From assembly GCF_030445035.2 (NCBI RefSeq), contig NC_080699.1, forward strand, positions 8,866,001-8,930,000: DNA of 64,000 nucleotides, in the 5' to 3' direction. Below the pieces are notes generated by a model. The model did no database searches and had not been told where the DNA came from. It saw only the letters and a program-made list of their open reading frames with translations. Below, in pieces: positions 16,131 to 49,527 of the stretch. The translations under genes were made by a program, and so were the position numbers. The stretch's first letter is position 1; every line of letters begins with the position of its first letter. Source of the DNA: Dasypus novemcinctus (lineage: Eukaryota > Chordata > Mammalia > Cingulata > Dasypodidae).

Positions 16131-16132
16131 GT

Positions 16133-16209: not shown

Positions 16210-16293
16210 AAGGCAATCCCACTACAGCACAACGTGGGGCAAGGCAACTCCACCACAGCCTCACTCCATAACCTGACGCCCCCCCCCCTCCTC

Positions 16294-17980: not shown

Positions 17981-18044
17981 AGCAGTCTCCTACAAACCAC
18001 AAAGTTTCTGTCTTAAACATACCATTCTCAACCCTATCCTCTAA

Positions 18045-23176: not shown

Positions 23177-24184
23177 TGTTGTGGAGAGAGAAGAGTCGGG
23201 TGTACATGGTATTGAAGGCCAGGATACGAGAAGCTGAGAAGTGAGGTAACAAGCATGCTACCATCGTTGGGCAGGCCCAGCACGTTGAGATGAGGCCTCG
23301 TCTCCTGCTGGGTGAGTGCTTGGCGTGGGTAGATTGTCGCCCCCTGCTACTCTTGCCCGTAACGGCTGCCTCCTCTATCTCCACCCAGCATCCGGTCTCC
23401 ATAGGGGCCGCTCTAGGGTAATTGGCCTGCCTCTCCCACGCCTCACCAGAACCCAACCCACAACTTCCCCTTATCTTCTGCCCCAGCCCCCATATACCCC
23501 CCACCAGAATGATAACCTCACCTCTGCCCCTTTACCTAGCAACAGCCTCCAACAACCAATCGGAGGTCGCCTTCAGCTTAAGCCAATCCGCACCCCACAC
23601 GTCGCCCCTTACCCTCGTACTTCACCCCCAACCGTCCCCCAGCCAATTAGCGGCCTCCCCTCACATATATTGTCTTATTTGGCTTAGTCTTGCTACCGCC
23701 AGCGCCCTAGCCTATATAAACGCTTGTCTTCCTCAATAAAGCAGACGTGTTGCCACGACTCTCCGTCTCTGCAGCATTCTTCGCGCCGCTGTGCGTCCAC
23801 CCTTGACACCGCCCGCTGTCCGCCGTGCGCCCTCAGAGAAGGAAGATTTATTATGACCGGCTGGACTCAGTGGACTCCTATCCTAATAAAAACTGAGCCC
23901 TGAAAATGATTTTTGGGTTCCTTTTATACAAAGGATGTAGGCGTGTGGAGTCAAATGGTGCTTATATATAAAAGGACTTTTTGTTAGTTTCTTAGAGTTT
24001 CAAGTGTTTTATCTGAGTATTAGATAGGTTTTGAATTAACACATACTCTCCAGGTAAGCTTGAATTAACACATATCCTCCACATTCCAGGTAAGTTTGAA
24101 TTAACACATTTAGCTTACATACACAGACCGGGTTATTTATGAAGAAAAACACAGCCTCCCCCCCCACACACACACCTCATATCA
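23177..24184 (-). repeat. 3' LTR of the minus-strand ERV, interrupted by another LTR
   Basis: Pieces 23177-23241 and 23842-24184 together match 29594-29961, with an extra partly duplicated stretch near 24050-24105 (TTGAATTAACACATA repeated). The gap is the 594-bp solo LTR below. Confidence 0.87.
23242..23835 (+). repeat. Class II solo LTR nested in the ERV LTR
   Basis: 594 bp, begins TGAGGTAACAAGCATGCTAC and ends TGCGCCCTCA. Exact 6-bp target duplication GAGAAG at 23236-23241 and 23836-23841; the sister LTR at 29.6 kb shows the empty site GCTGAGAAGGAAAATTTA. It has several CCAAT-type boxes (CAACCAATCGGAGG, AGCCAATCC, AGCCAATTAG), the TATA box CCTATATAAACGC at 23709-23721 and CTCAATAAAGC polyadenylation signal at 23732. 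Related in layout to the 15.2-kb LTR but a different family. Confidence 0.93.
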
Positions 24185-27100
24185 TTCCCCCCTTTGATGC
24201 AAGCTTAACTTGTTAAGCTTTGACATCACTGTTGTTGGAGTTGTGAGGGGTGGCTGTTTGTTGTTTTGATTACTCCACCTATTTCCCAGTGAGGGCCTAA
24301 AGATAAAGTTTTTGGGTAATATCTGGGGCTTTGTCTTGTTCTCAGAAGAAGTTTTTGTTCCGGATAGCAGAATCTTGGGGGTGGGGGTTTTCCAGGAGCC
24401 ATCTTGGGGGTTACTGATGTTCATGTGGACTTCCTGCTGGGTTCCAGATCCATCTATTAATTTCTTATTTTATAAACTTGCTTTATTTTCCCTTTAGAGA
24501 GCTTACACCTTTAATCTTAAAGGGGTGCTGAAGGGAGATGATCTTTTTTTCTGTAGCTATTTCCTGCTGCCATGGGCTGTAGTCCCTACCTGACAAGGTG
24601 CAAAATCTTCACTATTTTATTTAACCTGGAGGAAGTTGGATCTGGCATTCTGTATGAAGCTGAATGAAGTTTTCACATGGCTAACAAGATGCCCATTCTG
24701 AAAGAAACAAACTTAATTAGAATATTAGAAATACATGGTTTCTTTAAGGGAACACTGGATTACGGAAGTAGAAAAGGTTAGGTGTCTGCAAAGATGGCAC
24801 CTTTCTAAAGTTGGTGGGGAACAGTATATATATAAAAATTACCTTTTATGTTGTTGGTTAACACCAGAGAGAAATTGTAATAGACAACGGGATGAGTCAT
24901 AAATCGTTAATACTAGTTTTTATGGTAGAGGAGAGAAATGAGAAGAAGTATTTCTCTTTTCAGTTAAACTAAAGGAGATGAAAAGAGGCAAGGTTTTTAA
25001 AGGGAAGTCTGGCTTGTTTGGGTTTTTTTCTTCTAGTAATATACATTTGGGCTATAGTTAAAGGAAACAGTTGATTTTGACTTAAACATTACCTAGCTTT
25101 GTTTTTTGAAGACACAGTCCAGGCTGTCCAATGACTAGCACTCATGTGTTTTGTCAGGAGCTTCTGGTGAACTTGTACTCTTGGGTAGCTGACTTTATTC
25201 GGGATTAGTACATGAAGCTGAACATTTCTTTAGCTTTAATAGCTATGGGAGTAATTAGAGCTAAAGTTTTTATTTTTTAATTTTAATTGAGTAACTCCTG
25301 ATAAATTTTTTGACTGTTTTTACCAGGCTTTGTTTTTTTGAAAATCAGTTTGTTTAAGTTTTCCCCAGATGAGTGCCTTGGTGAAGGTCAGGAAGGACTT
25401 CTTATTGTTCTGCTCCTGGAAAGTAAGTTTGAGCATTTTTAAGAAGCTACCCCATCAGTTTTTAGGGTGAATTCAAGCTGGCTGCCCTGGTTTGTTTACC
25501 CTGGGTACACTGTGGAACTTTAGGTACTAGTACAGGTGCTGGAATAAGGGGTAGGAGGGAAACCTGGGTTGAGAGTTTGAGATACACCCTTATTTGCACC
25601 TTGGGGGTTTTTAGTAATTGAGCCTGGTATTAATTAACCAATTACCTGTAAGCCACTGGTGGCCCTGGGTTCAAGCACATCCTTCACCTAGAGTGGGGAG
25701 AAGGATGTGAGAGGTTGTCCCTAAGTTAATTTGGTGACTTTTTAATTAATCAAAAGGGTTGCTGGCCCCATTGCTCTCATGTTTATTAACTATTTAGAAA
25801 ATGAAGTTGATCAGGACCTTTAACATGTTCAATGTTTTTCTGTATGTGATTTACTAGAAGCATTACCATAGTTATCAGACATATATCTAGGATAGGATAA
25901 AGGTACAGTGCTTAATACTAATTAATGTATTACTTCATGTATAAGTTTTTCTTTAGCTGCAATTAATAACTTTAAGCTTCAGGTTAACTGGTTATTTTTC
26001 CATGGGAGCAAGCTATAGTGCCAACTGTGTTCAAGTTCTACTCACAGTATTCTGGTATTTACTGCTTCACTTCATATGTTCTTCATAGAAGCTGCAGCAT
26101 CACTGACCCTAGAGAGAAACTAGGGATTAGATCTTACCGGCCTGGTGCATAATCCTCTCTGGCACCATGAAACAGTGCCAGTTTGGAGACGATATCTATT
26201 GTACATTTGGCTATACTGAGCCACTGTTGGCTGCTACAGGAGTTCAAAACTGCAGAGTAGTTCCCATTCACTTCAGGAGCATGACCAGAGATGTAATAGA
26301 TACTTTTATTGTTTTAGGGGTCAGTGACCAACTTAGCCAATAACTCACATGGAGAAGTAACCTGCAGTATATTGGATGCCTGGTCTGAGTGCACACGAGG
26401 CTTTGACAATGCTGAAGTCTATGCTTTGATTTTTATACATCATTTAAACATTTTTAATGCAATGTCTCATATATTAAATGAACTTTTAGTACTTTGTTTT
26501 TTATTTTTACATTTTTACTATGAAGACGATAATTACACAGGAATTTTATTTTACCAATACAGGAAAAAAAATCATTTTTTTTCCTATTTTTAAAATGAAA
26601 ACTGAAGACTTTTAATGGAATCAAGGTTACTTTTTACTGCCACCACTTGAATATGCACTTTGAGGTGGCTTTTAGACAGATTTTATTGTTACCAAGTTAT
26701 TTTTTGCTATTAATACTAATTTAGATTTTTAATTAATAATAGCTTTTTAGAATTTGCCCTTTAAATGCTTTAATTTGGAAGATGCTTTTACAAATTTTTT
26801 ATACTAAACACAATTATATAAACTGGTTAATTTGCCTTAGATTATAATTGGCAACCGATGGATTTTATTGTATGCATTTAAGAGAGGGCAGATTTACTTT
26901 TTTTTAAAGTCAATTTTATTAAACATAAATTTACACTTTTTTATTATTTTAAAGATCTAATACATATAATGTTAACTTAATAACCTGGTATTTTACAAAC
27001 CAAAGAGATAGCACTCAGGCTAAATAAGTTGAAACTATTATTGTTTAAACAAACAATGTTATTGTTGTTTTTTCTCTATAAAACAAATTTAACTGTAAAA

Positions 27101-29573
27101 CAATATTTGAAAGATTTTCCTGAAGGTTTTTTTTTTTGTTGGCTTTTCAGATTATGGGTTCGTGGTTTTCCCCCTTTGTGGCTTTTTAATTAATGACTTA
27201 TAACCAAAATGTTTCCAATGCTATGATACAATTTTTTTGTTTTAGACTTGCGGTAACTGTAAGTAAAGGCAAACCCAGTTCATAATTACTTTCACAATAG
27301 TTGAAGTCTAGGGGTAGGTGAAATTAGTTATAAAATAATTATAATTAAAAGTAAATTTAAGTTATAATTACTATTACTATTGTAAGCATTAAATAAACTT
27401 AAAGTAGTCATAAATAAAAGTAACTTAAAGATTACTATTACAATAGCTGAAATTTAAGTTACATTTGCTCTGCTGTAATAACTCCAGTTATTAGTTTTCT
27501 CTATATATATAAAGGTCCTTATACAATGATTTTAACTCTTAGTTTCTAGAAAGTTTTTACTTAAAATTAATTTGGTTACCTTTATTTATTAATTATACAA
27601 TTAAAATAATTTTATTAGTAACAATTCTGTGCAGTTTTTCTGCCTTTTTCAGCAATTAAATAAATTTCACTTGTGAGTTATATATTAAATTTACTAGCAA
27701 GACAGTATTGGCATTTAAAGATTCATTTCCAGGTTACCTTTTACTGTCATCCAACTTGTAACAGGTGAACTCTAAATTTGATTTTCTAGGCATAAGCAAA
27801 CTGACAGAGTTAAATCGATTTTAAAGTTGAACACAAAATTAAGCACAGATTAAAACAAAAGCATTTTATTCCTTTGCATTTCTGGGGCAGTTTTAGACTT
27901 GGGAGACAGGCCGACTAAATTCTAATGTGATGTTGCCAAGCCGAATTGTGTTTTTTTTCTTCGTGGTTTTAGTTTTATGACTTTATTGTCTAATAGTTTC
28001 CCAGTTAAATCAGCCATTAAAGTACCCTTAAGTGATTAGAGGTTAATTGTTCTAGCTAACAGGCCTTGGGGCCTGAGGCAATAGTGTCTTTGTTAGACAA
28101 AGGCATTTTATTTTCACAGTTTTAAAAACATTTTAAAGTGTTCTGACACAAACCTGCAAAGAGAAATTTAGTAGCAAGAAGTAGGAAGGTAAAACATGGG
28201 TAAAGGTAAATTCCTTGTTCTTTTTTTGCCTTCCTTCTTCATTTTCCCAGGAAGCTGGGTGTGGTCAGATAGGAATGTGGCTAGCAAAGGCATGAATCCG
28301 CTGGGAGGGGCAAGCCCTCAGCTCTACGCCATTGCCATGCACCCCCCTAGGAGAGGGTGGGAGAAGGCAATGGCAGGCAAGCCCAATGAATGGCTGCTAA
28401 AATGGCTTGAAGAAGCTCTGCAGGGCCCGGCGCTCTCCCAGGGGACTACTGTCTTGGCAGGGCCATGATTTTAGCCAGTGTTCTATGATGCAGCCATCCT
28501 GACTGGGGCCAGATTCCACAAGCCTGGGCACATGGCGCAGATGTGGAGAATTCCCGAGCCCCCGCAAATGGCGAGAGCAGTGTACAAAGGGCGGGTATGG
28601 GTTTAGACAAGAGAGCAGAGCATGCACACGTTCAGGCTTCACTGTTTGCTTTATAAACTATTAATTATTCCACTACTTTGCCAATGGCAAGGGAGGGGCT
28701 CCAGCCTAACCAAAGTTCACTATTTCACACAATTTAATGCCACTATCTAGAGTTATGAAAATATTCACTGGCATCCAATAAACACAGACAGAAACACAAA
28801 GCTCATCAATTTGACTCATAATTTTCATTTTTCCAGTATGGCCATTTTTGAGGTAGAGCTTGTTAAGTATTGCAGCTTTAGCGAGGGGAGACTTTTAACA
28901 CTAAAGTTTTAACAGGACTTTTTGCCTACCCTTGCTATTTACAAAACAAGTTCATTTGCAATCCAGCAACAACACAAAGACTTATTTCTGGCTAAACCTT
29001 TCCACTGTTTAACTCATATTCAGACTGAGCTTTATTACAAAACCAATTCATTTTCTGTAGCCAAGATTTTCCAAATTCAGACCAATTTTTCAGAATGCAT
29101 TAGGATTTAAACTCATCAATATCCTTTTTCACTATAATCAAACCTTTGCTATCTTAGGGAAGGCAGAACCGAACCAGATGCTAACCCATAGTTAGCTAAA
29201 CTTAAATATCAGGCTTTTTAAATTTTCTTTCAGACCTGGAGAAGATGGCTTTCCCCTGAGTTTTTGGAGGTACTGGGGTCTTCTTTGGGAACTGACCAGG
29301 CTCCTTTTCTAATGTTTAAAGTTAGGTTTTCCAGACACTGTCGCCCCCAGAGAGTCCTACCTGTTTGGTGAGCAGTTTTTTTGCTTCATTCCCAAGGTCT
29401 CATTTGAACCCGCCAGTGCCTCCAGTTTCTCTGGGAGGGTTCCAGCAGAGTCCACGACCTCTTTCTGGACTGAGGGAGTGCAGGGGTGCCCAGGGCTGGG
29501 GTTTTCCCCGAGCCCTTCTGGGAGATGTCCGGGAGGGGCAAACAACTGTTGCTGTCTCTGGTTTTCTCAGCAT

Positions 29574-29591
29574 ATCCTCGATGAGCCCCCA
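29574..29591 (-). promoter_or_regulatory. Primer-binding site of the minus-strand ERV
   Basis: TGGGGGCTCATCGAGGAT on the minus strand, 2 bp inside the 5' LTR; 15 of 18 positions agree with the tRNA-Pro primer site. Confidence 0.7.
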
Positions 29592-29593
29592 GA

Positions 29594-29961
29594 TGTTGTG
29601 GAGAGAGAGAAGTCAGTTGTATGTGATATTGAAGGCCAGGACACAAGAAGCTGAGAAGGAAAATTTATTATGACCAGCCGGACTCGGTGGACTCCTGTCC
29701 TAATAAAAACTGAGCCCCAAATAGGATTTTTAGGTTCCTTTTACATAGAGGACATAGGAGTGAGGAGTCAAATGGTGCTTATATGCAAAAGGACTTTTTG
29801 TTAGTTTCTTAGAGTTTCAGGTGTTTTATCTGAGTATTAGATAGGTTTTGAATTAACACATACTCTCCAGGTAGGCTTGAATTAACACATTTAGCTTACA
29901 CACACAGCCCAGATTATTTATGAAGAAATACACAGCCCCCTCCCACACACAGCCCATAGCA
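29594..29961 (-). repeat. 5' LTR of the minus-strand ERV
   Basis: 368 bp; plus-strand start TGTTGTGGAGAGAGAGAAGT, end ...AGCCCATAGCA. The minus strand carries a polyadenylation signal (CATAATAAATTTTCC). It is the uninterrupted sister of 23177-24184. Confidence 0.88.
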
Positions 29962-29965
29962 ACAT

Positions 29966-30540
29966 CTACAACATGAACTTCCCCATTTTAACCACTTTAA
30001 AACTTACAATTCAGTGGCATTAATTGTCTGCAATTTTGTGGCACCACCAGCAACATCCATTAGCAAAACGTTTCCATCACCCCAGACCGAAGCTCTGTAT
30101 ACATTAAGCGGTAACTCCCTAGTCTCAGTCCCCACTCCCACCCTTCGTAACCAGGAACCTGCTTTCCATCTCTATGAATTTGCATATGATGGTTATTTGA
30201 TATCAGTGAGATTACAATATCTGTCCTTTTCTGTCTTGCTTATTTCACTCAACAGGATGTCATCAAGTTTTATTCATGTAGTTGCATGTATCCGAACTTC
30301 ATTCATCTTTAACCCGAATAATAGTCCACTGTACGTATACACCACAGTTTGTTTATCCATCCATTCTTTGGAAGACACTTGGGATGCTTCTGCCTTTCAA
30401 CTGCTATGAATAATGGTGTTGTGAACACTGGTGTAGAAACGAGTCCCTGCTTTCAATTCTTTGAGTGTGTACCTAGAAGCGGGATTGGCGTGTCATATGG
30501 TGATTTTGGTTAACTTTTCCAAAGCGTTTCCTCATCAGCT
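29966..30540 (-). repeat. Ancient L1 3' end
   Basis: Plus-strand phrases CCCCATTTTAACCACTTTAA, TACAATTCAGTGGCATTAAT, GCACCACCAGCAACATCCA, and further on CTTATTTCACTCAACAGGAT and ACCACAGTTTGTTTATCCAT are those of the reversed 3' end of old mammalian L1s. The minus-strand ERV inserted at its left edge (ACAT duplication). Confidence 0.7.
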
Positions 30541-32197: not shown

Positions 32198-32209
32198 AGA
32201 CTGTACAGG

Positions 32210-32581
32210 GAAGCAGATATGGCTCAAGCAGTTGGGTGCCTGCCTGCTACATGGGAGGTCCTGGGTTCAGTTCCCGGTGACTCCTAAAGATGAGCAAGAC
32301 AGTGAGCTGATGGGATGTGCTTGCGCAGCGAGCTGACACAAGATAATGCAGTGAGGAGCCACAATGAGAAAACACAATGAGAGATACAAGCAGAGAGCGG
32401 ATATGGCTCAAACAACTGGGCACCTCCCTCCCACATGGGATGTCCCGGGTTTGGTTCCCGGTGCTGCCTAAAAAAAAAAAGACGAGCAGACCAGAGAGTA
32501 CACAGCGAGCAGACAGAGTCCAAACAATGGGCGGGGGGTGGGGTGGAGTATAAATAAATAATAAATCTTTAAACATAAATA
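32210..32581 (+). repeat. DAS-SINE, dimeric old type
   Basis: Head 1 AAGCAGATATGGCTCAAGCA...GGTTCAGTTCCCGG, head 2 at about 32397 (GCGGATATGGCTCAAACAAC...GGTTTGGTTCCCGG), tail AATAAATAATAAATC. Flanks AAGACTGTACAGGG and AAGGCTGTGCAAAA form a degraded target duplication. Confidence 0.93.
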
Positions 32582-32593
32582 AAGGCTGTGCAA

Positions 32594-34103: not shown

Positions 34104-34107
34104 ATAC

Positions 34108-34585
34108 TGATGTAGGTTATGGGTGGGTGGGGGGTTGTTCATCTCTTCGTAGATAACCTGAGCTGTATGTGCCCTGAGCTGTGCGTTTGGGACAGTGAGA
34201 ACGGCAGTCCTGCCCTTGGTAACCACGACAACATCTCCAGTCCTGCAGAACAGTTTAGCAATGCAAACTCTATGAACTTTAAATACTCAGGAAAAATGCA
34301 AACCAAATGTGCTAAAAGCTTATCTAGAATGTATGAAGTCCATGCTAAAAGCTTACCTAGGATGTGGAAGATATATCTTAATTCAAGCTTATTGAGCACT
34401 GAACCAAAGAACCATTTGGTCCTTCCTCCATATAAAAAGAGCTCAAAAATCTTGTACAGGGCTCAGATTTTGAATGAGAAGCTCCAAGCCCAGCCGATTG
34501 TAAATAAATCCATTTTCCTTTCCAAAATATTCCTGAGTCCTGGCCTTTCTATGTGCAAATAATTGAACCTCTTCTGACTTGTACA
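34108..34585 (+). repeat. 5' LTR of ERV copy A
   Basis: Begins TGATGTAGGTTATGGGTGGG; TATA region CATATAAAAAGAGC at 34429; polyadenylation signal GTAAATAAATCC at 34500; ends GACTTGTACA. Confidence 0.9.
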
Positions 34586-35494
34586 TTTTTGGGGGCTCTC
34601 CCGGGATTTGCAAATGAAGGCCAGAGAAGGTAGCAGTTTGCTAACCCTTCTGGATCCCCGAGGAAGCCAGGAGGACTCAGGTGAATCCCAATCTGGGTGC
34701 CCCTGGGTTACATTTAATCCAGAAAAGATGTGGGCTCCACCAGAATCTTCCCGATGAAAATCAAGGGCAATGGAAGGTATGAAAAAAAATTCTGGGAACG
34801 AAAAAGACTCCAAACATGGAAGAAGGTGACTCCCCAGGGAGCACAGTCAGGAAAACCCTAGCTTTAATTGCTAGGGAGGGAGCCTGATCACCTCCCAGGA
34901 GACCCCATTACCTCCAGAAATTTGGGGGGAAGCTGTCTCCTCCAGGTCTGAAAGGAAAGAAAAAAAAAGGGAAAAAGTCTAGTCTTTTGGGTTTGTCTAA
35001 CTGCATGTTAGTTTCTGGTTTCTGGTCTTGCCTCCACTAAAATAGTGAAGGCTTGATTATAATAATAAAGGATGTTTATAGGTTCAAGTCCTAACATCCT
35101 GGAAATTGGTCTGAAATTTGAAAAACTTGGTTACAGGAAAATGAATCAACTTTTCTAATGAAGCTTGGTCTGAGTATAAAGGTAAACAGTGAAAAGGTCT
35201 AGCCGAAATCTTTTGTTATGGTGCTGAATTGCAAATTAATTCACTTTATATCAGATGTTAATATTAAGTGTTCTCTCTTTCTAAGGTTTGTAATGGCTGC
35301 AGAGGCAGCCATGCCGAAGAAAAGATATATAGAACTTGTAAGTCAGATTAATAACTTTTGTGCTTCTGTCTGTGTCAGCTCAATGCTCGTGTTAGAATTG
35401 TGTAGTAACATAAAGTAGTAAAATGTGGTTCAGCTGGAACCCTTCCTTGCCACTGGTGAAGAAGTGAGTTGATTGTAGTTTATAAAACAAAACC

Positions 35495-35835
35495 GCAGAG
35501 TGAGTGTGTGTGCGCATGCTCTGCTATCTTGCCTCTCTGGGCCGGCCCGTTTGCGGGAACTCAGGGATTGTCTGTGTCTGTGTCAGCGTCATGCCCCTGA
35601 GTTTGTTGGAGCTGGCCCAGTCAGGGTGGCTGGTGGAGCCAGTGACTTGAATCATAGCCCTGCCAGAATAGGGGGTCCCCAGGAAAAGCGCCGAATTTGG
35701 AGGGTTCTTGCGGGCTAATTTTAGCAGCCTGGACCTCACCGCCATTCTCTTCTCTCCCCTCCTCCCTTTAGGAGGATGCATGATAAAATCAGAAAGCTGG
35801 GAAGGGGGAGCAGCTTGCCCTTTTCCAATGAGTCC
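35495..35835 (+). other. Highly conserved leader-proximal block of the ERV family (copy A)
   Basis: GC-rich island about 0.9 kb after the primer site. It is almost the same as 43942-44282 of copy B (few substitutions over ~340 bp), and 28640-28250 of the minus copy is recognisably homologous. A 72-codon frame here differs at only two residues between A and B, but the frame is open in a GC-rich context and matches no family. A packaging or RNA-structure role is a guess from position. Confidence 0.5.
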
Positions 35836-36558
35836 ACGCCTTCTATTCATAAGCCACATTCCTACTTAATCGCTATGCACCTGACTGCCTGGAAGGGGGG
35901 AGGTGAAGGTGATGCAGAGCAGGATCAAAATAAATGCAGTAAAGTTTCCTCCCTAAGGTGTCAAAGGTCAAAATAAATTTACATTCTGCTCAGGTTCTGC
36001 TTTTCCGAATCTCTCTCTCTGTGAGTCTATGTAGAAATGCTTTGAGATGTTTTAAAGTTATAAACTTGTCTAAAGGAAGGAGGCTATTGCTGGAAAACAA
36101 TAAACCTCTAATCACTTGATAGCCCTTTTAATGGTTTGTCTGGGAGCAATCAGCAGTAAGGGTGCTGAGATACTGCAGGAAAAAAAAATAAAAACAAAAA
36201 ACAGGGAAGCTTCCCAGGGTTGTTGCTGATAAGATTATTGTAACTTGATTGATGTGGGTACCCAATTCATCTTAAAGTAAAACTTACTAGAAACTGTAAC
36301 TAAGAGTTAGGATCAATTATAGATGCATTTATATTATAAAACAGCAGAAGGATAATAACTGAAATTATAACTGGGTGGATTTAGCCTGAACCTATTATTT
36401 TAAGTGTAAATTCTAAACTAACCTTTTCTTTGTTTATGGTCACTTCAAGCCTAGCCTCACCCCTTGCCTTTGCTTATGGTTATTTCATAACATCTTCTGC
36501 CCCTATAGCCCAGGGAAAAGCATATGTGAGACATCCCTGTCTCCTGTCCTACTGGTAC

Positions 36559-37008
36559 TGTTGTAGAATTTGAGAGAAGTTCAATTACTTGAGTATGGAG
36601 AGGCCAGGACTCAGGAATGATTTTGAGAAGGAAAAATGGTTTATTGACGGCCGGCCGGACTCAGGAACTTTCTGTTTGAATCCCGAGCCCCAAACAAGAT
36701 TTTTTAGCCCCTTTTATACAGAGAGGAAAGGCCAAATGGTCCTTTTGTTTCAGTTCTCAATAGACTTGAATTAGCATATATTTCCACATCTTAGTAAGCT
36801 TTTAGCATGGACCTCAGGCATTCGATAAGCTTTTAGCATATTTTCTTTGCATTTCCCCTGAATACTTAAAGTTTATAGACCTTGCATTGTTAAACTGTCT
36901 CCTGCTCACCAAGGGCAGGACTGCAACCTTTCATCATCCCACACCCACAAGTCACAGTTTAGGTTATCTCTGAAGAGACAAAGAGCCTGCCACCCATAGC
37001 CCACATCA
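36559..37008 (-). repeat. Antisense solo LTR inside ERV copy A
   Basis: 450 bp, plus-strand start TGTTGTAGAATTTGAGAGAA and end GCCCACATCA; it is the same LTR family in reverse. Exact 4-bp duplication GTAC at 36555-36558 and 37009-37012. Copy B at 45449 shows the uninterrupted site CTACTGGTACTAGTGACCCT. Confidence 0.94.
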
Positions 37009-40000
37009 GTACTAGTGGCCCTGCTTTCTCTCATGATTCCAAGTGTGGACTGAATTGCTGCCTGGTGGAATTCTTAACCCTTGGGGTTGAACATCCACTG
37101 GAGTTTTATTATCTCCAAGGACTGGAAAATAAACGAGATCTCCTGCCCTGACTGTCAGGGTTCCTAAGAGTGGCAATGCATGAGAGAAACCAGTCTCCCT
37201 GAGGCTTCAATAGCCTTGGTAAATATACATAGAATTAGTCTTGCTCATCCAAAGTCTGCTAAGGTCAAAGTAACATATAAAGTTCTGAAGCAAAAGAAAT
37301 TTGTATTAAAGAATTGGGAACATTTTGGTTACAAGCCATTAGTTAAGAAACAAAATTCTTGTGCAAAACCGCATGCTCATAGCACAGATTAAGGGGGGGG
37401 AAATCCAAAAAAACTTTAAGAAGATCTTTCAAATGTTTTGTAGTCACACTTATTTTGTAAAAAAATTAAAGTTTTAAGTAACTAAGTTGTGTTTCTGTGT
37501 CAAATTATTCATGTCTGCCTGTTTGCTAAAATTGTTGGGGTTAAATATGCAGTTACATATGTGACTAAATATTCCTGGAGCCCAAATTAGACTAAGCAGG
37601 ATGGAAAGGTCATATAGAAATCTGATTATGGGAACTATTGGGAAAAGGCCTTCTCTTTGCAAGAGCTTTGAGGGAGAGGCTAGGTGTGGCAAATTAAAAC
37701 TATCTTCTAGGCTGGGAAATTAAGAATCAGTTTGCCCTGTAATCCCCCAGTTTAAACCTCTTAACAGCTTTAAAATAAAGGTGTTTAATAATTCTATTAC
37801 CAAATTTCAGTAAGTAAAAGAAAGTCCATAAAGTTATGAAAAGATCTTTCCTAAATTATGATTAAACAAATTATACAACTATAATATATTTTGGAACCTA
37901 GTAGTCAGTATGCTTTTAAAATTATTCACAGTTTCAGAACTTAAACAAAGAAAGAGGTTTTAGCCTCCTGTAAAAAAAGGAAAGAGAACATTTCTTGCAT
38001 AAACTATAATGGTTTCAATTTTATTTAGCTTGGGTGTAATCTCCCTTGGTTTATAAAATACCCATTAAATAAATTAACATTTTATGTACAAAATCTTTGG
38101 AGTAATAGAAATTAAAAGTTCATGTTAATGAAATTAAGCTAAAGAAAAAATTATAGATATGCTCTCTTAAATGAATAAAGTAAACTTCTTTGGTTGGTAA
38201 TTGTAATTTAATAAGTTTATTTAAATGTAAGGTAACTAGTCTATGTGGTTGTGGTCAATGATAAAGAGTTTGTAAAAGCATCTTCCAAACTGAAACATTT
38301 AAACAGTTCTAGTTCTAGAAGCCATTGTTAACTAAAAACCTGGATTGGTATTGATGGCAAAGAATAAGTTTGTGATAATAAAACCTGTCTGAAGTTCACC
38401 TGAAGGTGCATATTTAAGTAAATGGTAATGGAAAGTTATCTTGATTCCAATAGGAATCTTCCATTCATTTTAACAAAACAGTTTTCTTCTACTACAAAGG
38501 TAAAATGCCTGCTAGTATCTTCATGGTAAAAGTGTAAAAAAAAACCAGTCATTTGATACATAATGTGTTGCATTAAAAATGTTTAAAAATACATAAAAAC
38601 AAGGGATAAACTTTAACATTGTCGAACTCTCTTGTGCATTCAAACCAGGCCTTGACTACATTGCATGCCTCTCCTTGTGAGTTATTGTCTAGGCTGGTCA
38701 CAGGCCCCTCAATCAGAAATATTTCCTATATCACACTCCTGGTTGTGCTCCTGAAGTTGACGGAAACCACATTGCAGATTCAAGCTCCTGCAGCAGCCAA
38801 TGATGGCTTGGTACAGCCAAGTGTACAATGGATATTGCCTCCAGACTGGCACTGTTCCATAGTGCCAGAGAGCACTGTGCACCAGGCCAGTAAAATACTG
38901 GAAACTCTCTAGGATCAGCAATGCTATGACTTGCTCACTGTGTGAAGAACATGCAAAGTGGAGCCATGATTACCAGGATACTGTAAGTAAAACTTAAACA
39001 CAATTGGCATTATGGCCTGCTCCCATGGAGAGATAACATGTAAATTATTACAAACCTGAAACTTAAAACTATTAATTGCAACTCAGAATCCTTATGCATT
39101 AAGGAATACAATAATTAATATTAAGTGCTCTACTTTCATCCTGTTTTAAATATATGCCTAATAATTATAATGTTATCTTTTCTATTCTGGATCAGGTACA
39201 AAAGTACATTAGACATGTTACATTCCTGGTAACTTCATTTCCTAAATAGTTAATAAGCATGTCTATGAAATAAGATGACGGTCTTAGCTAAACACAATGG
39301 AGCCACCAGTGGCTTGCAGGTAGCTGGTTAACTGGTGCCAGGCTCAGCCACCCTGCTACTCGACTGTACTCTTCTGTGTAGCAGAAACGAGGCTTGCTTG
39401 CTAGTGATAGGTCAGCTATCGAACAGTCAAAATTACCATAACTATTCAATTAAAACCAAAATGTAAAAAAATTTTATTCTGTAGTTCTGAGCACTCCCAC
39501 AGCTAAAACTAAGGAAATTTCCAACCTGGTGCACTAATCCTGAATGAAACCAACTGCCCAAAAGGTGCCAATTCACCAGAAGCACCTGATGGAGCACATG
39601 AGTGCCAACCATTAAACGGCCTGAAATGCATTTTCAAAACAAAGCTAAGTGCCTAATACTGTTATCTATTACAATTTCTCTTTGACAATAAATAACTTAA
39701 AAATATACATATAAATATATATATAGATATATACTGTTCCCCACCAACTTTTACAAAAGAGTGCCATCTTTATAGACACCCAACCTTGTCTACCTCTGTA
39801 ATCCAACATCCTCTTTCAGAAAACAGGTATTTCAAAATTTTAATTAAGTTTGTTTCTTTCAGAACGAACATCTTATTAACCATATGAAAACTTCATCCAG
39901 CTTCATACAGAATGCCAGATCCATCTTCCTCCAGTCAAAATTAAAAAAACAAAGTTTTTGTTAGGTAAGGACTATAACCCATGGCCAGCAGGAAGTAGTT

Positions 40001-40357
40001 ACAGAAGAGAGATCATCTCCCTTCAGCACCCCTTTAAGATTAAAGGCGTAAACTCTCTAAGGGTAAAATAAAAGTAATAAATGGATCTGGAGCTTAACAA
40101 GAAATCCACATGAGCACCAATAAGCCCCAGGATGACTGCTGGGGGGCCCCACCCCCAGGATTCTACTGTCCAGGACGAGAACAACTTCTGAAAACAGGAT
40201 AAACCCCAAATGTTACCCAGGAACCTTCTCTTTGGGCCCTCACTGGGAAATTGATAAGAGGGATAATCAATGAAAACAAAGAACAGCCACCCACCTCATA
40301 ACTCCGACAATAATTCTGCCAAAGCTTAGCAGGATAAGCTGGCATAAAGGGGGGAAA

Positions 40358-40836
40358 TGATGTCAGTCATGGGTGGGGGGCTGTTCATCTCTTCGTAGAT
40401 AACCTGAACTGTCTGTGTCCTGACCTGTGCGTTTGGGACAGTGAGAACTGCAGCCCTGCCCTTGGTAACCATGACAACAACTGCAGTCCCAGAGAAACAG
40501 TTTAGCAATGCAAACTCTATGGACTTTAAATATTCAGGGAAAATGCAAACCAAATGTGCTAAAAGCTTATCTAGAATGTATGAAGTCCATGCTAAAAGCT
40601 TACCTAGGAAGTGGAAGACATATGTTAATTCAAGCCTATTGAGCATGGAAACAAAGAACCATTTGGCCCTTCCTCTGTATCAAAAGAGCTCAAAAATCTT
40701 GTTCAGGGCTTGGATTTTGAATGAGAAGCTCCGAGCACGGCTGGGGATAAATAAATCCATTTTCCTTCCCCAAATTATTCCTGAGTTCTGGCCTTTCTAT
40801 ACACAAATAATTGAACCTCTCTGGATTTCTACAACA
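40358..40836 (+). repeat. 3' LTR of ERV copy A
   Basis: Begins TGATGTCAGTCATGGGTGGG straight after the purine tract and ends GGATTTCTACAACA. Closely similar to the 5' LTR with scattered substitutions, so older than the class II provirus at 15.2 kb. Confidence 0.9.
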
Positions 40837-40840
40837 ATAT

Positions 40841-41950: not shown

Positions 41951-42028
41951 AAGACATTCAGTAAAGAAAATCTGTTTTCTCCAACAGCCCTTAGAATGTA
42001 TTCCAAGGACAAATAATTTATCATTGAT
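41951..42028 (+). repeat. 78-bp direct repeat, left of ERV copy B
   Basis: AAGACATTCAGTAAAGAAAA ... AATAATTTATCATTGAT, directly abutting the 5' LTR. Its partner is 49451-49527, two bases after the 3' LTR, with one indel and a few substitutions. Confidence 0.93.
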
Positions 42029-42936
42029 TGATATAGGCAGTGGGTGGGTGGGCTGTTCGTCTCTTCATAGGTAACCTGACTGAGTTGTGCATCTGGGACA
42101 GTGAGAACTGCAGCCCTGCCCTTGGTAACCATGACAACAACTCCAGTCCTGGAGAAACAGTTTAGCAATGCAAATTCCATGGACTTTACGTATTCAGGGA
42201 AAATGCAAACCAAAGTTGCTAAAAGCTTATCTAGAATGTATGCAGTCCATGCTAAAAACTTACCTAGGATGTGGAAGACATATGTTAATTCAAGCCTATT
42301 GAGCATGGAAACAAAGAACCATTTGGCCCTTCCTCTGTATAAAAAGAACTAAAAAATCTTGTTCAGGGGAAGCTGACTTGGCCCAATGGGTAGGGAGTCC
42401 GTCTACCACATGGGAGGTCCGCGGTTCAAACCCCGGGCCTCCTTGACCCGTGTGGAGCTGGCCCACGCGCAGTACTGATGCGCGCAAGGAGTGCTGTGCC
42501 ACACAGGGGTGTCCCCGCATAGGGGAGCCCCACGCACAAGGAGTGCACCCCATAAGGAGAGCCACCCAGCGCGAAAGAAAGTGAAGCCTGCCCAGGAGTG
42601 GCGCCACACACATGGAGAGCTGACACAACAAGATGATGCAACAAAAAGAAACACAGATTTCCAGTGCCACTGATAAGGATAGACGTGGTCACAGAAGAAC
42701 ACACAGCCAAAAGCAAATGGACACAGAGAGCAGACAACTGGGGGGGGGGGGGCGGGGAAGAGAGAAATATATAAAAAATAAATCTTTTTAAAAAAAAATC
42801 TTGTTCAGGGTTCAGATTTTGAATGAGAAGCTCCGAGCTGAGCCGGTCATAAATAAACCCATTTTCCTTCCCCAAATTATTCCTGAGTCCTGGCCTTTCT
42901 ATATGCAAATAATTGAACCTTTCAACTTCTACAACA
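42029..42936 (+). repeat. 5' LTR of ERV copy B, split by a DAS-SINE
   Basis: Begins TGATATAGGCAGTGGGTGGG, ends TTCAACTTCTACAACA. Without 42369-42810 it is 478 bp, like the other family LTRs. Confidence 0.92.
42369..42792 (+). repeat. DAS-SINE in the 5' LTR of ERV copy B
   Basis: A box TTGGCCCAATGGGTAGGGAG, B box GCGGTTCAAACCCCGGGCC, long GC-rich body, G-run and AAAAAATAAATC tail. Perfect 18-bp duplication AAAAAATCTTGTTCAGGG at 42351-42368 and 42793-42810; the other family LTRs give the empty site. Confidence 0.97.
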
Positions 42937-43445
42937 TTTTGGGGGCTCTCCCAGGATTTGTAGGTGAAGGCCAGAGATGGTAGCATTTTGCTGCCCCTTC
43001 CAGATCCCTGAGGAAGCCAGGAGGACTCAGGCGAACCCCAACCTGGGTGCCCCAGGATTACATTTAATCCAGAAAAGATGTGGGCTCCACCAGAAGGTTC
43101 CCGGAGAAAATTGAGGGCAATGGAAGTTCTGAAGAAAAATTCTGGGAAAGAAAAGAACTCCAAACATGGAAGCAGGTAAGACTGCCTGGGGGAGCAGAGT
43201 CTGGAAAGCCCTAGCTTTAATTGCTAGGGGAGAGGCCGATCACCTCCCAAGAGAACCCCAGTACCTCCAGAAATTTGGGGGGAAGCCATTCTCTCTAGGT
43301 CTGAAAAAAAGGAGAAAAAAAAAGGGAAAAAGCCTGGTGTTTGGGGTTTGTCTAACTGCATGTTAGAGTTTGGTACTGGTCTTGTCGCCACTGAGATTAT
43401 AAAGGCTTAATTACAATAGGAAGGGATGTTTATAGGTTTGAGTCC

Positions 43446-43607
43446 TAACGTCCTGGAAATTGGTCCGGATTTTGAAAAACTTGGTTACAGGAAAATGAAT
43501 CGGCTTTTCTAGTGAAGCTTGGTCCCTAACGTCCTGGAAATTGGTCCGGATTTTGAAAAACTTGGTCACAGGAAAATGAATCGGCTTTTCTAGTGAAGCT
43601 TGGTCCG
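43446..43607 (+). repeat. 81-bp tandem duplication in ERV copy B
   Basis: CTAACGTCCTGGAAATTGGT starts both units at 43446 and 43527. Units differ at one visible base (GGTTACAGG versus GGTCACAGG). Copy A has a single unit at about 35088-35168. Confidence 0.93.
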
Positions 43608-44783
43608 GGTATAAAGTTAAACAGGGAAAAAGGTCTAGCTGGAATTTTTTGTTATGGCGCTGAATTGCGAATGCAATTGCGAACGCATTCGCTTCATATC
43701 AGTTGTTAATGTTAAGTGTTCTCTCTTTCTAAAGTTTGTAATGGCTGTGGGGGCAGCCGTGCTGAAGAAGATATGCATAAAACTTGTAGGTCAGATTAAT
43801 GAGTTTTGTGCTTCTGTCTGTGTCAGTTCAATGCTATGTTGGAGTTGTGTGGTTATGTAAAGTGGTAGAATTTGGTTCAGCTGGAACCCTTCCTTGCCAC
43901 TGGTGAAGAAGTGAGTTGATTGTAGTCTATAAAACAAAACCGCAGAGTGAGTGTGTGTGCGCATGCTCTGCTATCTTGCCTCTCTGGGCCGGCCGGTTTG
44001 CGGGAACTCAGGGATTGTCTGTGTCTGTGTCAGCGTCATGCCCCTGAGTTTGTTGGAGCTGGCCCAGTCAGGGTGGCTGGTGGAGCCAGTGACTTGAATC
44101 ATAGCCCTGCCAGGATAGGGGGTCCCCAGGAAAAGCGCCAAATTTGGAGGGTTCTTGCGGGCTAATTTTAGCAGCCTGGACCTCGCCACCATTATCTTCC
44201 TCCCCTCCTCCCTTTAGGAGGATGCGTGATAAAAGCAGAAAGCTGGGAAGGGGGAGCGGCTTGCCCCTTCCCAGTCAGTCCACACCTTCTATTCTTAAGC
44301 AACATTCCTATCAAATCACTGATCCTGGAAGAGGGGCGGTAAGGGAAACCTCTCTCTTTATAAGTCAACGCTTTGAAAAGTTTAAAGCTGTAAATTGGTA
44401 AAATACCTTGGTCTAAGGAAAGAGGCTATTGCTTGAAAACAATAGACCTCTAATCACTTGAGAGCCCTTTTAATTGTCTGGCTGGAGACCTCACCAGTAA
44501 GGGTCGTAAAACTGCAGGAAAAAGGGGGGGATAAACCTCAATTTTAAAATCTGTGTTTGGCTTTGTCAGTCACTTGTGCCTAAGAATTCAGAGTAAAGGG
44601 TAGTTTAAAAATGAATCTTTAGAGGCCAATACTCTCTTGCTGGTGAATTAAATGCACAACTCGCCTTTGAGAATTTGTTCCCTTACTAGGAAAAGGCAGA
44701 ACTTCACAGAATTGTTACTAATAAAAGTCTTGTAACTTAATTAATAAAGGTATCCAATTCACCTTAAGGTTAAAACTTAACGA

Positions 44784-45178
44784 GGGAAGCAGACTTGGCC
44801 CAATGGAGGTCCGCAGTTCAAACCCTGGGCCTCCTTGACCCGTGTAGAGCTGGCCCATGCGCAGTGCTGATGCACGCAAGAAGTGCCCTGCCACGCAGGG
44901 GTGTCCCCCGCATAGGGGAGCCCCACGCGCAAGGAGTGTGCCCCATAAGGAGAGCCACCCAGTGCGAAAGAAAGTTCAGCCTGCCCAGGAGTGGTGGCTG
45001 CACACACGGAGAGCTGACACAAGATGACGCAACGAGAATAGACACAGGTTCCAGGTGCCGCTGACAACAATACAACAATAGAAGCAGACACAGAAGAACA
45101 CACAGCGAATGGAGACAGAGAGCAGACAACTGGGTTGGGGGGAAAGGGGAGAGAAATAAAAAAATAAGTCTTTAAAAA
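44784..45178 (+). repeat. DAS-SINE in the interior of ERV copy B
   Basis: GGGAAGCAGACTTGGCCCAA head lacking ~20 bp before the B box (CGCAGTTCAAACCCTGGGCC), standard body, tail AAATAAAAAAATAAGTC. Target duplication AAAACTTAACGA / AAAACTTAATGA at 44772-44783 and 45179-45190; copy A at 36275-36300 gives the empty site. Confidence 0.95.
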
Positions 45179-48100
45179 AAAACTTAATGAAAATTGTAAC
45201 TAAGTTAAGATAATTTATAGATGCATTTACATTATAAAATAGCAGAAAGATAATAACTGAAATTATAACAGGGTGGATCTAACCTGAACCTATTATTGTC
45301 AGTACAAATTCTAAACTAACCTTACCTTTATTTATGGTCACTTCAAGCCTAACCTCACCCCTGCCTTTGCTTATGGTTATTTCGTAAGTTTCTGCCCCGA
45401 TAGCCAGGGAAAAGCACATGTGAGACATCCCTGTCTCCTGTCCTACTGGTACTAGTGACCCTGCTTTCTCTCATGATTCCGAGTGTGGACTGAATTGCTG
45501 CCTGGTGGAATTCTTAACCCTCGGGGTTGAACGTCCCCTGGAGTTTTATTATCTCCAAGGACTGGAAAATAAAGGAGATCACCTGCCCTGACTGTCAGGG
45601 TTCCTAAGAGTGGCAATGCATGAGAGAAACCAGTCTCCCTGAGGCTTCAATAGCCTTGGTAAATAAACATAGAATTAGTCTTGCTCATCCAAAGTCTGCT
45701 AAAGTTAAAGTAAAATATAAAGTTCTGAAACAAAAGAAAATTGTATTGAAGCATTGGGAACATTTTGGTTACAAGCCATTAGTTAAGAAACAAAATTCTT
45801 GTGCAAAACTGCATGGTCATAGTGCAAATTAAGAAAAAACCTTTCAGGAGTCTTTGAATTGTTTTGTAATCACACTTATTTTGTAAAAAAAAAATGAAAA
45901 TTTTAAGTAACTAAGTTATGTTTCTGTGTCAAACTATTCATGTCTGCCTATTTGCTCAAATTGTTGGAGTTAAATATGCAGTTATATAAGTAATATATAT
46001 ATTTCTTAAACCCAAATTAAACTAAACGGTATATAAAATAATGCAAATTATAAGTAACATCAATGAGTTGTGTTTCTCTGTCTAACTCTATTTGTGCCTG
46101 CCTATTTGCTCAGTGTATGTTTTCATGCACCAGGATAATAATATCAAATTAACAAATGAAAATTCTTAAAAGAGCTCTATTCAAATTGTCAAAAATTAAA
46201 TATGCAGTTATATATGTGAATAAATATTCCTGGAGCCCAAATTAGACTAAGCAGGATGGAAAGGTCATATAGAAATCTGATTATAGGAACTATTGCAAGA
46301 GTTTTGAGGGCGGGACTAGGTGTGGCGGATTAAACCTGTCTACTAGGCTGGGAATTAAGAAGCAGTTTGCCCTGTAATTCCCCAGTTTAAACCTTTTGTC
46401 AGCCTTAAAATAAGGGTGGTTAGTGGTTCTGTTGCCAAATTTCAGTAAATAAAAGAAGGTCCATAAAAGCTTTCCTGGATTATGATTTTAAAAATTATGC
46501 ATTTGTAATGTGTTTTGGAACCTGGTAGTCAGTATGTTTTTAAAATTATTCACAGTTTCAGAACTTAAACAAAGAAAAGAGGTTTTGGCTTCCTGCAGGG
46601 AAAGGGGGGAGGGCGTTCCTTGCATAGACTACAATGGTTTCAGTTTTATTTAGCTTGGGTGTAATCTCCCTTAGTTTATAAATTGCCTATTAAATAAATT
46701 AACATTGTATGTACAAAATCTTTGGAGTAATGAAAATTCTAAGTTCATTTTAATGAAATTAAGCTAAAGAAAAAATTGCAGATATCCTCTCTTAAATGAA
46801 TAATGTAAATTTCTTTGGTTGGTAATTGTAATTTAATAAGTTTATTTAAATGTAAGGGAGCTAGTGTATGTGGTTGTGGTCAATTATAAAGAGTGTGTAA
46901 AAGCATCTTCCAAACTGAAACATTTATACAGTTCTAGAAGCCATTGTTAACTAAAAACCTGGATTGGTACTGATGGCGAAGAATAACTTCGTGATAATAA
47001 AACCTGTCTGAAGGTCACTGAAAGGAGCATATTTAAGTAAATGGCAATGAAAAGTTAACTTAATTCTACGGGAATCTTCCATTTTCATTTTAACAATGAA
47101 AAATAGTTTTTCCTTCTACTACTAAGGTAAAACTCATGGCAAAGTATAAAAAATACATATAAACAAAGTCATTTGATATATAATGTGTTGCACTAAAAAT
47201 GTTTAAAAATATATAAAATCAAGGGGTAAACTTTAACATTGTTAAACTGTCTTGTCAAACCAGGCCTTGAATACATTGCAGGGTGCCTCTCCATGTGAGT
47301 AATTGGCTAGGCTGGTCACGGACCCTTCAAATAAAAATGTTTACTATATCAACCTGTGGGTATGCTCCTGAAGTTGAGGGAAACTACGGTGCAGTTTCAA
47401 GCTCCTGCAAGTAGCCAATGATGGCTCAGTACAGCCAATGTACAATAGATATCACCTCCAGACTGGCACTGTTCCATAGTGCCAGAGAGCACTATGCTCC
47501 AGGCCGGTAAAATGCTGCAAACTGCCTTCTTGGCTTCTCTCTAGGATCAGTGATGCTGTGACTTGCTCACAGTGCGAAGAACATGCTAAGTGGAGCCATG
47601 TAAGTAAAACTTAAACACAATTGGCCTTACAGCCTGCTCCCATGGAGAGAGAACATGTAAAGTATTACAAACCTGAAACTTAAAACTATTAATTGCAACT
47701 CAGAATCCTTATGCGTTAAGTAATACATTAACATTAAGTGCCATACTTTTATCCTGGTCTAAATATATGCCTAATAATTATAATGTTATCTTTTCTATTC
47801 TGGATCAGGTACAAAAGTACATTAGACATGTTAAATTCCTGGTAACTTCATTTACTAAATAGTTAAACATGTCTATAAAATAAGGTGGCGGTCTTAGCTG
47901 GAAACAATGGGGCCACCAGTGGCTTGCAGGTAGCTGGCTAATTGGTGCCAGGCTCAGCCACCCTACTACTCCACTGTACTCTACTGTGTAGCAGAAACGA
48001 GGCTTGCTTGCTAGTGATGGGTCACCTATTGAACAGTCAAAATTACCAAAAACTATTCAATTAAAACCAAAATGAAAAAAACAACAACTTTATTCTGTAG

Positions 48101-48969
48101 CTCTGAGCACTCCCACAGCTAAAAAAACCTAAGGAAATTTCCAACTTGGTGCACTAATCCTGAACGAAACCAACTGCCCAAAAGATGCCAATTCACCAGA
48201 AGCACCTGATAGAGCACATGAGTGCCAACCATTAAACGGCCTGAAATGCATTTTCAAAACAAAGCTAAGTGCCTAATACTGTTATCTATTACAATTTCCC
48301 TCTGAAAATAAATATCTTAAAATATATATATATATATATATACTATTCTCCACTAACTTTTAAAAGGGGTGCCATCTTTATAGGTACCTAAACTTGTCTA
48401 CCTCTGGAATCCAATGACCGCTTTTAAAAACAGGTGTTCCAAATTTTTAATTAAGTTTGTTTCTTTAGGAATGAACATCTTATTAAACATATGAAAACTT
48501 CATCCAGCTTCATACAGAATGCCAGATCCATCTTCCTCCAGTCAAAATAAAGTTAACAGTTTTTACACCTTGTTAGGGAAGAACTACAACCCATGACCAG
48601 CAGGAAGTAGCTACAGAAAAGAGATCATCTCCCTTCAGCACCCCTTTAAGATTAAAGGTGTAAACTCTCTAAGGGTAAAATAAAATTAATAAATGGATCT
48701 GGAGATTAACAAGAAATCCACATGAGCACCAATAAGCCCCAGGATGACTGCTGGGGGGCCCCACCCCCAGGATTCTACTGTCCAGGATGAGAACTTCTTC
48801 TGAAAACAGGATAAACCCCAAATGTTACCCAGGAACCTTCTCTTTGGGCCCTCACTGGGAAACTGATAAGAGGGATAAGCAATGAAAATAACGAACAGCC
48901 ACCCACCTCATAACTCCGACAATAATTCTGCCAAAGCTTAGCAGCATAAGCTGGCATAAAGGGGGGAAA

Positions 48970-49448
48970 TGATGTCGGTTATGGGTGGGGGGCTGTTCAT
49001 CTCTTCGTAGATAACCTGAGCTGTATGTGTCCTGAGCTGTGCGTTTGGGACAGTGAGAACTGCAGCCCTGCCCTTGGTAACCATGACAACAACTCCAGTC
49101 CTGGAGAAACAGTTTAGCAATGCAAACTCTATAAACTTTAAATATTCAGGGAAAATGCAAACCAAATGTGCTAAAAGCTTATCTAGAATGTATGAAGTCC
49201 ATGCTAAAAGCTTACCTAGGATGTGGAAGATATATGCTAATTCAAGCCTATTGAGCACAGAAACAAAGAACCACTTGGCCCTTCCTCTGTATAAAAAGAG
49301 CTCAAAAATCTTGTTTGGGGCTCAGATTTTGAATGAGAAGCTCTGAGCTGAGCCGGTCATAAATAAACCCATTTTCCTTCCCCAAATTATTCCTGAGTCC
49401 TGGCCTTTCTATACACAAATGATTGAACCTCTCTTGACATCTATAACA
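48970..49448 (+). repeat. 3' LTR of ERV copy B
   Basis: Begins TGATGTCGGTTATGGGTGGG after the purine tract and ends TTGACATCTATAACA. Confidence 0.92.
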
Positions 49449-49450
49449 GC

Positions 49451-49527
49451 AAGACATTTAGTAAAGAAAATCAATTCCCTCAACAGCCCTTAGAATGTAT
49501 TCCAAGGACAAATAATTTATCATTGAT
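49451..49527 (+). repeat. 77-bp direct repeat, right of ERV copy B
   Basis: Partner of 41951-42028. It runs on into GAGGTACGC, the sequence expected to follow the left copy if no provirus were there. Confidence 0.93.

What the first reader, a model, noticed from the sequence alone, without database searches (positions are those of the whole stretch)
23177..49448. A family of coding-free LTR retroelements: three near-complete copies in 26 kb
The copies at 23.2-30.0 (minus), 34.1-40.8 and 42.0-49.4 kb (plus), plus solo LTRs at 4.3 and 36.6 kb, share LTRs, tRNA-Pro-like primer sites, a purine tract and a collinear 5-6-kb interior with no recognisable gag, pol or env. Because A, B and the minus copy keep the same noncoding interior, the family spread in this form, mobilised by another virus, and did not arise by separate decay of coding proviruses. 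A large, conserved, noncoding cargo is unusual and may hold packaging or transport RNA elements.
Basis: partly seen in the sequence, partly recalled or inferred. Interest (0 to 1): 0.8.

Follow-up and report, generated by a model that had tools for sequence, protein, structure and literature searches.

The report
Noncoding retrovirus-like repeat family in mammal
Three old retrovirus-like insertions without recognisable protein genes share an ancestor that already looked noncoding in the parts they have in common, so they were probably copied by another virus's enzymes, as mouse VL30 and ETn are; it is a good example of a known kind of genome parasite.

Summary
Three LTR elements, A 34108-40836 (+), B 42029-49448 (+) and C 23177-29970 (-), and two solo LTRs (4262-4855; 36559-37008, nested in A) share LTRs; A, B and C also share a tRNA-Pro-like primer site, a purine tract and collinear interiors: A-B over 5086 of 5315 bases of A's interior, A-C over 3206.

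No gag, pol or env family was found in 118 sense and 142 antisense pieces. Stop triplets are inherited: 265 of 320 shared by A and B, 139 of 198 by A and C, like control triplets. A-B divergence is what the LTR pairs predict from decay after insertion. So the source was already noncoding and must have been copied in trans.

Limits: C shares only blocks; parts of A and B look gene-converted; an older dead gag-pol origin (VL30-like) is not excluded; no conserved RNA element was found. The host genome, Dfam and Repbase could not be searched. It works like VL30/ETn: a new member of a known kind. One oddity: B lies between 77-78-bp direct repeats, not a 4-bp duplication.

The parts
34108..34585 (+). 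copy A, 5' LTR
   Evidence: target duplication ATAC (left) / ATAT (right)
34590..34607 (+). copy A, tRNA-Pro-like primer binding site
   Evidence: read; tRNA identity recalled
34586..36558 (+). copy A interior, first part (up to the nested solo LTR and its 4-bp duplication)
   Evidence: blocks 78-90% identical to B
35770..35771 (+). copy A, splice-acceptor-like AG after a long pyrimidine tract, also in B and C
   Evidence: function inferred
36559..37008 (-). solo LTR of a related subfamily nested in copy A, target duplication GTAC
37009..40345 (+). copy A interior, second part, including AT-rich core 37974-39261 (GC 0.33)
40346..40357 (+). copy A polypurine tract
40358..40836 (+). copy A, 3' LTR
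   Evidence: differs from the 5' LTR at 46 of 471 sites
41951..42028 (+). left copy of the long direct repeat flanking B (78 bp)
   Evidence: 72 of 78 columns identical to the right copy
42029..42936 (+). copy B, 5' LTR, interrupted by a SINE-like insert at about 42369-42793
42940..42957 (+). copy B, tRNA-Pro-like primer binding site
   Evidence: tRNA identity recalled
43176..43177 (+). copy B, splice-donor-like GT (CAG/GTAAGA); C has CAG/GTAGGA, A differs
   Evidence: function inferred
42937..48957 (+). copy B interior (holds a SINE-like insert at about 44786-45180 and an 82-bp tandem duplication at 43444-43606)
48958..48969 (+). copy B polypurine tract
48970..49448 (+). copy B, 3' LTR
49451..49527 (+). 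right copy of the long direct repeat flanking B (77 bp)
29594..29970 (-). copy C, 5' LTR, target duplication ACAT
29574..29591 (-). copy C, tRNA-Pro-like primer binding site
   Evidence: tRNA identity recalled
24185..29593 (-). copy C interior, collinear with A/B in blocks; polypurine tract at 24185-24195
23177..24184 (-). copy C, 3' LTR, interrupted at 23242-23835 by a foreign solo LTR with 6-bp duplication GAGAAG
4262..4855 (+). solo LTR of a related subfamily, target duplication GGAC

Best explanation
This is a family of non-autonomous class I (gammaretrovirus-like) LTR retroelements. Each copy came from an RNA with cis signals only: LTR promoter and poly(A) site, primer site, leader with a splice donor, purine tract. 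The interior was already noncoding in the source. The RNA was packaged, reverse-transcribed and integrated by proteins of a coding retrovirus in the same host. Shown: anatomy, collinearity, shared stop triplets, 4-bp duplications at four of five insertions (one of them with a mismatch). Inferred: helper virus, packaging, splicing, LTR activity.
For: TG..CA LTRs, 4-bp target duplications at C and both solo LTRs and, with one mismatch, at A; primer site and purine tract. Collinear interiors. No gag, pol or env family in 118 sense and 142 antisense stop-to-stop pieces of 33 aa or more; best E 0.021 and 0.023, to unrelated families. The same method on an L1 decayed in silico finds reverse transcriptase in 4 of 32 pieces at 6% substitution, about A's and B's distance from their source (LTR K2P 0.105 for A, 0.088-0.093 for B). 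Stop triplets shared in homologous places: A-B 265 of 320 (0.83; controls 0.82 and 0.79), A-C 139 of 198 (0.70; controls 0.67 and 0.63), B-C 136 of 208 (0.65; controls 0.61 and 0.67), in all three frames. No 3-base periodicity of substitutions: A-C 57, B-C 106 and A-B 71 of 200 shuffles reach the observed maximum. A-B interior mismatch 0.093 is about the sum of half of each LTR-pair divergence, so both came from nearly the same sequence.
Against: The helper virus was not seen. The Pfam scan found no reverse transcriptase in the L1 control at 15% decay with denser indels (0 of 35 pieces), so it cannot exclude an older coding origin. One of the 118 sense pieces matched PF17495, a Vpr-like retroviral accessory family, at E 0.29; I take it as chance. 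Stretches not aligned between A and C (mostly 35.8-38.0 kb) cannot be judged by shared stops; gaps between shared A-C stops reach 1725 bp there. Low-divergence tracts between A and B (4 mismatches in 300 columns, 0 of 2000 shuffles) suggest gene conversion, so A-B similarity is partly secondary. B lacks a 4-bp duplication. Only three copies could be read; the own-genome search did not complete.
Confidence: 0.85

Rival explanations
1. A sub-case of the best explanation, VL30 mode: the interior is old gag-pol that had already died in the source lineage before A, B and C were inserted. The element is non-autonomous but its interior is retroviral by descent.
For: VL30 is described this way: gag- and pol-related regions with many stops. 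The Pfam scan loses L1 reverse transcriptase at 15% decay (0 of 35 pieces), so it cannot see such remains. Leader, donor-like site and acceptor-like site about 1.2 kb in follow retroviral order.
Against: No gag, pol or env hit in 260 pieces; no codon periodicity; the middle is AT-rich (GC 0.31-0.35, against 0.40-0.42 in the LTRs and 0.45-0.48 in the leader part).
Confidence: 0.4
2. The other sub-case, ETn-like mode: the AT-rich core of roughly 3 kb is non-retroviral sequence, for example a captured host transcript, that replaced the genes.
For: Change of composition between leader part and core in all three copies; no retroviral similarity.
Against: No host source was found, and no collection with mammalian genomes could be searched. 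Composition alone is weak evidence.
Confidence: 0.45
3. Separate decay of coding proviruses: A, B and C were inserted with genes, and each lost them afterwards.
For: The copies are old (LTR K2P about 0.09-0.12; one search gave 0.120 for A and 0.152 for C with looser boundaries).
Against: Stops are shared in homologous places in all frames. The 5-6% decay of each copy leaves reverse transcriptase detectable in the L1 control.
Confidence: 0.03
4. A and B are not two insertions but copies made by local duplication.
For: Same orientation, 1.2 kb apart, tracts of 95-99% identity; 3' LTRs of A and B are closer to each other (K2P 0.077) than A's own LTRs (0.105).
Against: The flanks show no match, each copy has its own boundaries, and over the whole interior A and B differ about as much as each LTR pair does. 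Gene conversion explains the tracts.
Confidence: 0.04

Closest known systems
VL30 (mouse; PMC4859993, passages read)
   Same: Non-autonomous LTR element; full-length copies of 4075-6321 bp, LTRs 436-681 bp, 4-bp target duplications in 76 of 86, primer sites for Gly, Pro and other tRNAs, no intact ORFs, retrotransposition thought to be mediated in trans by a murine leukaemia virus reverse transcriptase.
   Different: VL30 has recognisable gag- and pol-related regions; none was found here. Sequence relation not tested.
ETn/MusD (mouse; PMC6466679, passages read)
   Same: LTR element with no coding capacity, spread by a coding relative.
   Different: ETn is class II and its helper MusD is known. 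Here the 4-bp duplications and Pro-like primer site point to class I, and no helper is known.
LARD elements of plants (recalled)
   Same: Large conserved noncoding interior between LTRs.
   Different: Of plant LTR retrotransposons; not retroviral.
MER4-group and other class I families of human Repbase (PMC5753468 and PMC4724089, passages read)
   Same: Old class I elements with several LTR subfamilies.
   Different: Not compared by sequence; Repbase and Dfam are not available here.

Membership tests
LTR retroelement | Paired TG..CA LTRs, primer site after the 5' LTR, purine tract before the 3' LTR | tested here: met
   A, B and C:
Class I (gamma-like) ERV | 4-bp target duplication (recalled as typical of gammaretroviruses) | tested here: met
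   C, solo 4.3 and solo 36.6 exact, A with one mismatch; B is an exception
Class I (gamma-like) ERV | Pol of the gammaretroviral branch | not testable with these tools
   no pol found
Non-autonomous LTR family | Interior noncoding in the source and shared by separate insertions | tested here: met
   A-C only for the aligned 3206 bases
Non-autonomous LTR family | A coding relative shares LTR, primer site and leader | not testable with these tools
   The genome search 'own' unanswered
VL30 | gag- and pol-related remnants | tested here: inconclusive
   no hit in 118 sense pieces, but 15% decay hides even L1 reverse transcriptase
VL30 | Sequence homology to VL30 LTR and interior | not tested
   no VL30 sequence was fetched
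ETn | Class II origin (6-bp duplications recalled) | tested here: not met
   4-bp duplications

The most novel reading that the evidence does not exclude
The AT-rich core is a captured non-retroviral sequence kept through at least two subfamily lineages (A/B and C) because the RNA needed it, and copy B, bounded by 77-78-bp repeats instead of 4 bp, was inserted by a route other than ordinary integrase joining.
Probability: 0.08. Interest if true: 0.55.

Novelty: new member of a known kind. Interest (0 to 1): 0.3.

Why it matters
It is a clear case, probably outside rodents, of a large noncoding class I retroelement that kept spreading through at least two subfamilies. If a coding partner with the same LTR and leader were found, the pair could show what a retroviral RNA minimally needs in order to be copied in trans. 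It does not by itself change any view of retroelements.

Tried and rejected
Codon periodicity was negative in all three comparisons. Rfam at the gathering threshold gave one tRNA-like hit for the whole window, outside the elements; at E up to 5 it gave 3 and 2 sub-threshold hits to unrelated families in the element regions, one a tRNA-like hit inside the insert of B's 5' LTR.

Local folding: windows with z below -2 are 5 of 68 in A, 4 of 79 in B, 4 of 71 in C and 3 of 78 in control flanks. Homologous windows checked: the tract at 35486 is low in A (-2.90) and B (-3.91), not in C (-0.33); the window at 38887 is low in A (-3.66), not in B (+0.64) or C (-1.48). Two low B windows (47737 and 47812, z -3.5) are not among A's six lowest; I did not test their homologues directly. 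Rejected as evidence for a conserved element, though three copies are few.

The GC-rich tract 35426-35725 was considered as a constrained element; rejected, because C is only 68-73% identical in the blocks there, which fits A-B conversion better.

Patterns in IMG/VR found nothing. Extra Pfam scans of flank pieces matched 0 of 10 and 1 of 10. Literature searches listed no paper that I could see to describe this family; I saw listings and, for five papers, passages. Repbase or Dfam may hold it.

Dropped before counts: reading-frame pieces under 33 aa (at 30 aa there would have been 138 sense pieces); A-B blocks under 200 columns in the sliding table. The natural control was a chosen 100 pieces, its L1 pieces 55 aa or longer, so it is easier than the test; the decayed L1 used 33 aa as the test did.

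The host is probably a xenarthran: the tRNA-derived SINEs resemble DAS-SINEs. This is recalled and untested.
Full report
What is there. Self-comparison of the window and reading of the junctions show three long LTR elements: A, 34108-40836 on the plus strand; B, 42029-49448 on the plus strand; C, 23177-29970 on the minus strand. Two solo LTRs of related subfamilies lie at 4262-4855 (plus) and 36559-37008 (minus, inside A). The LTRs are about 480 bp in A and B (without inserts) and about 375-410 bp in C, with TG..CA ends. Target duplications are GTAC for the nested solo LTR, GGAC for the other, ACAT for C and ATAC/ATAT for A. A, B and C have a primer site starting TGGGGGCTC just behind the 5' LTR and a purine tract AAAGGGGGGAA(A) just before the 3' LTR. 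That the primer site is for tRNA-Pro is recalled; 2-3 of 18 positions differ.

Inserts. A holds the nested solo LTR. B holds a SINE-like insert in its 5' LTR and another in its interior, plus an 82-bp tandem duplication. C's 3' LTR holds a 594-bp foreign solo LTR (23242-23835) with the 6-bp duplication GAGAAG, which suggests class II.

How alike the interiors are. A and B align over 5086 of A's 5315 bases of interior; the mismatch rate over 4963 ungapped columns is 0.093. A and C align in nine collinear blocks covering 3206 bases of A, mismatch rate 0.221 over 3087 columns; B and C in eleven blocks covering 3467 of 6033 bases of B, rate 0.224 over 3338 columns. So the shared interior is nearly complete for A/B and partial for C, which lacks similarity mainly between about 35.8 and 37.9 kb of A.

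Is it noncoding? No gag, pol or env family was found in 118 sense stop-to-stop pieces of 33 aa or more or in 142 antisense pieces. The best matches are to unrelated families at E 0.021 and 0.023; one sense piece matched a Vpr-like accessory family at E 0.29, which I take as chance. On 100 chosen pieces from elsewhere in the window the method finds L1 reverse transcriptase in 2 (best E 1.9e-22) and other L1 domains; these L1 pieces were 55 aa or longer. With the L1 decayed in silico and cut at 33 aa, 4 of 32 pieces still match reverse transcriptase at 6% substitution (best E 3.8e-6), but 0 of 35 do at 15% with denser indels. The scan therefore has power for the state at insertion (LTR pairs K2P 0.105 in A, 0.088-0.093 in B, so about 5% per copy), not for a much older coding state. 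One search, with looser LTR boundaries, gave 0.120 for A and 0.152 for C; its value for B (0.237) is spoilt by the insert.

Inherited stops. Stop triplets of A are kept in B in 265 of 320 homologous places, like control triplets (0.83 against 0.82 and 0.79). In A-C it is 139 of 198 (0.70 against 0.67 and 0.63), in B-C 136 of 208 (0.65 against 0.61 and 0.67). Shared stops lie in all three frames. Where A and C align without a long break, the longest stretches without a shared stop are 375, 243 and 204 bp in the three frames; across unaligned stretches the gaps reach 1725 bp and say nothing. Substitutions show no 3-base periodicity (57, 106 and 71 of 200 shuffles reach the observed maximum for A-C, B-C and A-B). 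So the common ancestor of A, B and C already lacked long ORFs in the parts that they share.

Order of events. A-B divergence (0.093) is what half of each LTR-pair divergence adds up to (about 0.05 + 0.046), so A and B came from nearly the same source sequence. A-C divergence (about 0.26 after Jukes-Cantor correction by hand) exceeds the same sum (about 0.11) by roughly 0.15, so the noncoding form had been copied long enough to form distinct subfamilies. With a recalled mammalian rate of 2.2e-9 per site and year, the insertions would be some 20-27 million years old; this is rough.

Caveat on A and B. Their mismatches are uneven: 4 in the 300 columns 35426-35725, where 0 of 2000 shuffles go as low (mean minimum 16.3). 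The 3' LTRs of A and B (K2P 0.077) are closer to each other than A's own two LTRs (0.105). Because C is only 68-73% identical in this tract, gene conversion between neighbouring copies is likelier than constraint.

How it most likely works. The elements carry the cis signals of a retrovirus and nothing else that could be recognised. A donor-like site lies in the leader of B and C (A differs there), and an acceptor-like AG behind a pyrimidine tract, about 1.2 kb into A, is kept in all three. An RNA with these signals must have been reverse-transcribed and integrated by proteins of another retrovirus. That virus, the packaging step and the splicing are inferred. The middle of the interior is AT-rich (GC 0.31-0.35, against 0.45-0.48 in the leader part and 0.40-0.42 in the LTRs). 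This could mean a foreign insert, as I suppose for an ETn-like origin, or old dead genes, as in VL30; I cannot decide between them.

No sign of an RNA device. Rfam gives nothing credible.

Comparison with what is known. VL30 (PMC4859993, passages read) is the nearest functional parallel: non-autonomous, 4075-6321 bp, LTRs 436-681 bp, 4-bp duplications in 76 of 86, several tRNA primers including Pro, no intact ORFs, thought to be mobilised in trans by a murine leukaemia virus enzyme; but it keeps gag and pol remnants. ETn (PMC6466679, passages read) has no coding capacity and is mobilised by MusD. Repbase lists many class I families in human (PMC5753468, passages); HERV mosaics are described in PMC4724089 (passages); PMC3183009 (passages) lists young sloth families named ERV2N1 and no young families for the armadillo. 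My searches listed no paper that I could see to describe this family, but Repbase and Dfam were not searchable, so it may well be catalogued.

Verdict. The kind is known; the interest is modest.

Noticed in passing
41951-42028 and 49451-49527: Copy B lies between 78- and 77-bp direct repeats (72 of 78 columns identical) that end at its 5' LTR edge and start 2 bases after its 3' LTR; there is no 4-bp duplication. Their divergence is similar to that of B's LTRs, so the repeat probably arose at insertion. A target duplication this long is unexpected for a retroviral integrase.
   Followed up: partly
15194-19812: A young class II-like LTR element: LTRs identical over 938 columns, 6-bp duplication GCTAGG, Lys-like primer site (recalled), only about 2.7 kb of interior with a 167-bp tandem repeat and no long gag-pol ORF. 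Probably a recent internally deleted or non-autonomous element.
   Followed up: partly
35426-35725: A and B differ at only 4 of 300 columns here, against 9.3% overall; likely gene conversion between neighbouring copies.
   Followed up: yes
23242-23835: A 594-bp solo LTR of another family with 6-bp duplication GAGAAG sits in the 3' LTR of copy C.
   Followed up: partly
14957-22451 and 53395-55869: A diverged inverted duplication of about 2.5 kb (78-84% identity); the young class II-like element is inserted in one copy. Nature unknown.
   Followed up: no
59786-60058: Minus-strand open piece matching the hemopexin domain (E 3.3e-13); 3 of 100 pieces matched it. Probably exons of a host gene.
   Followed up: no
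9752-14990: L1 on the plus strand with ORF1 and ORF2 domains in long open pieces.
   Followed up: no
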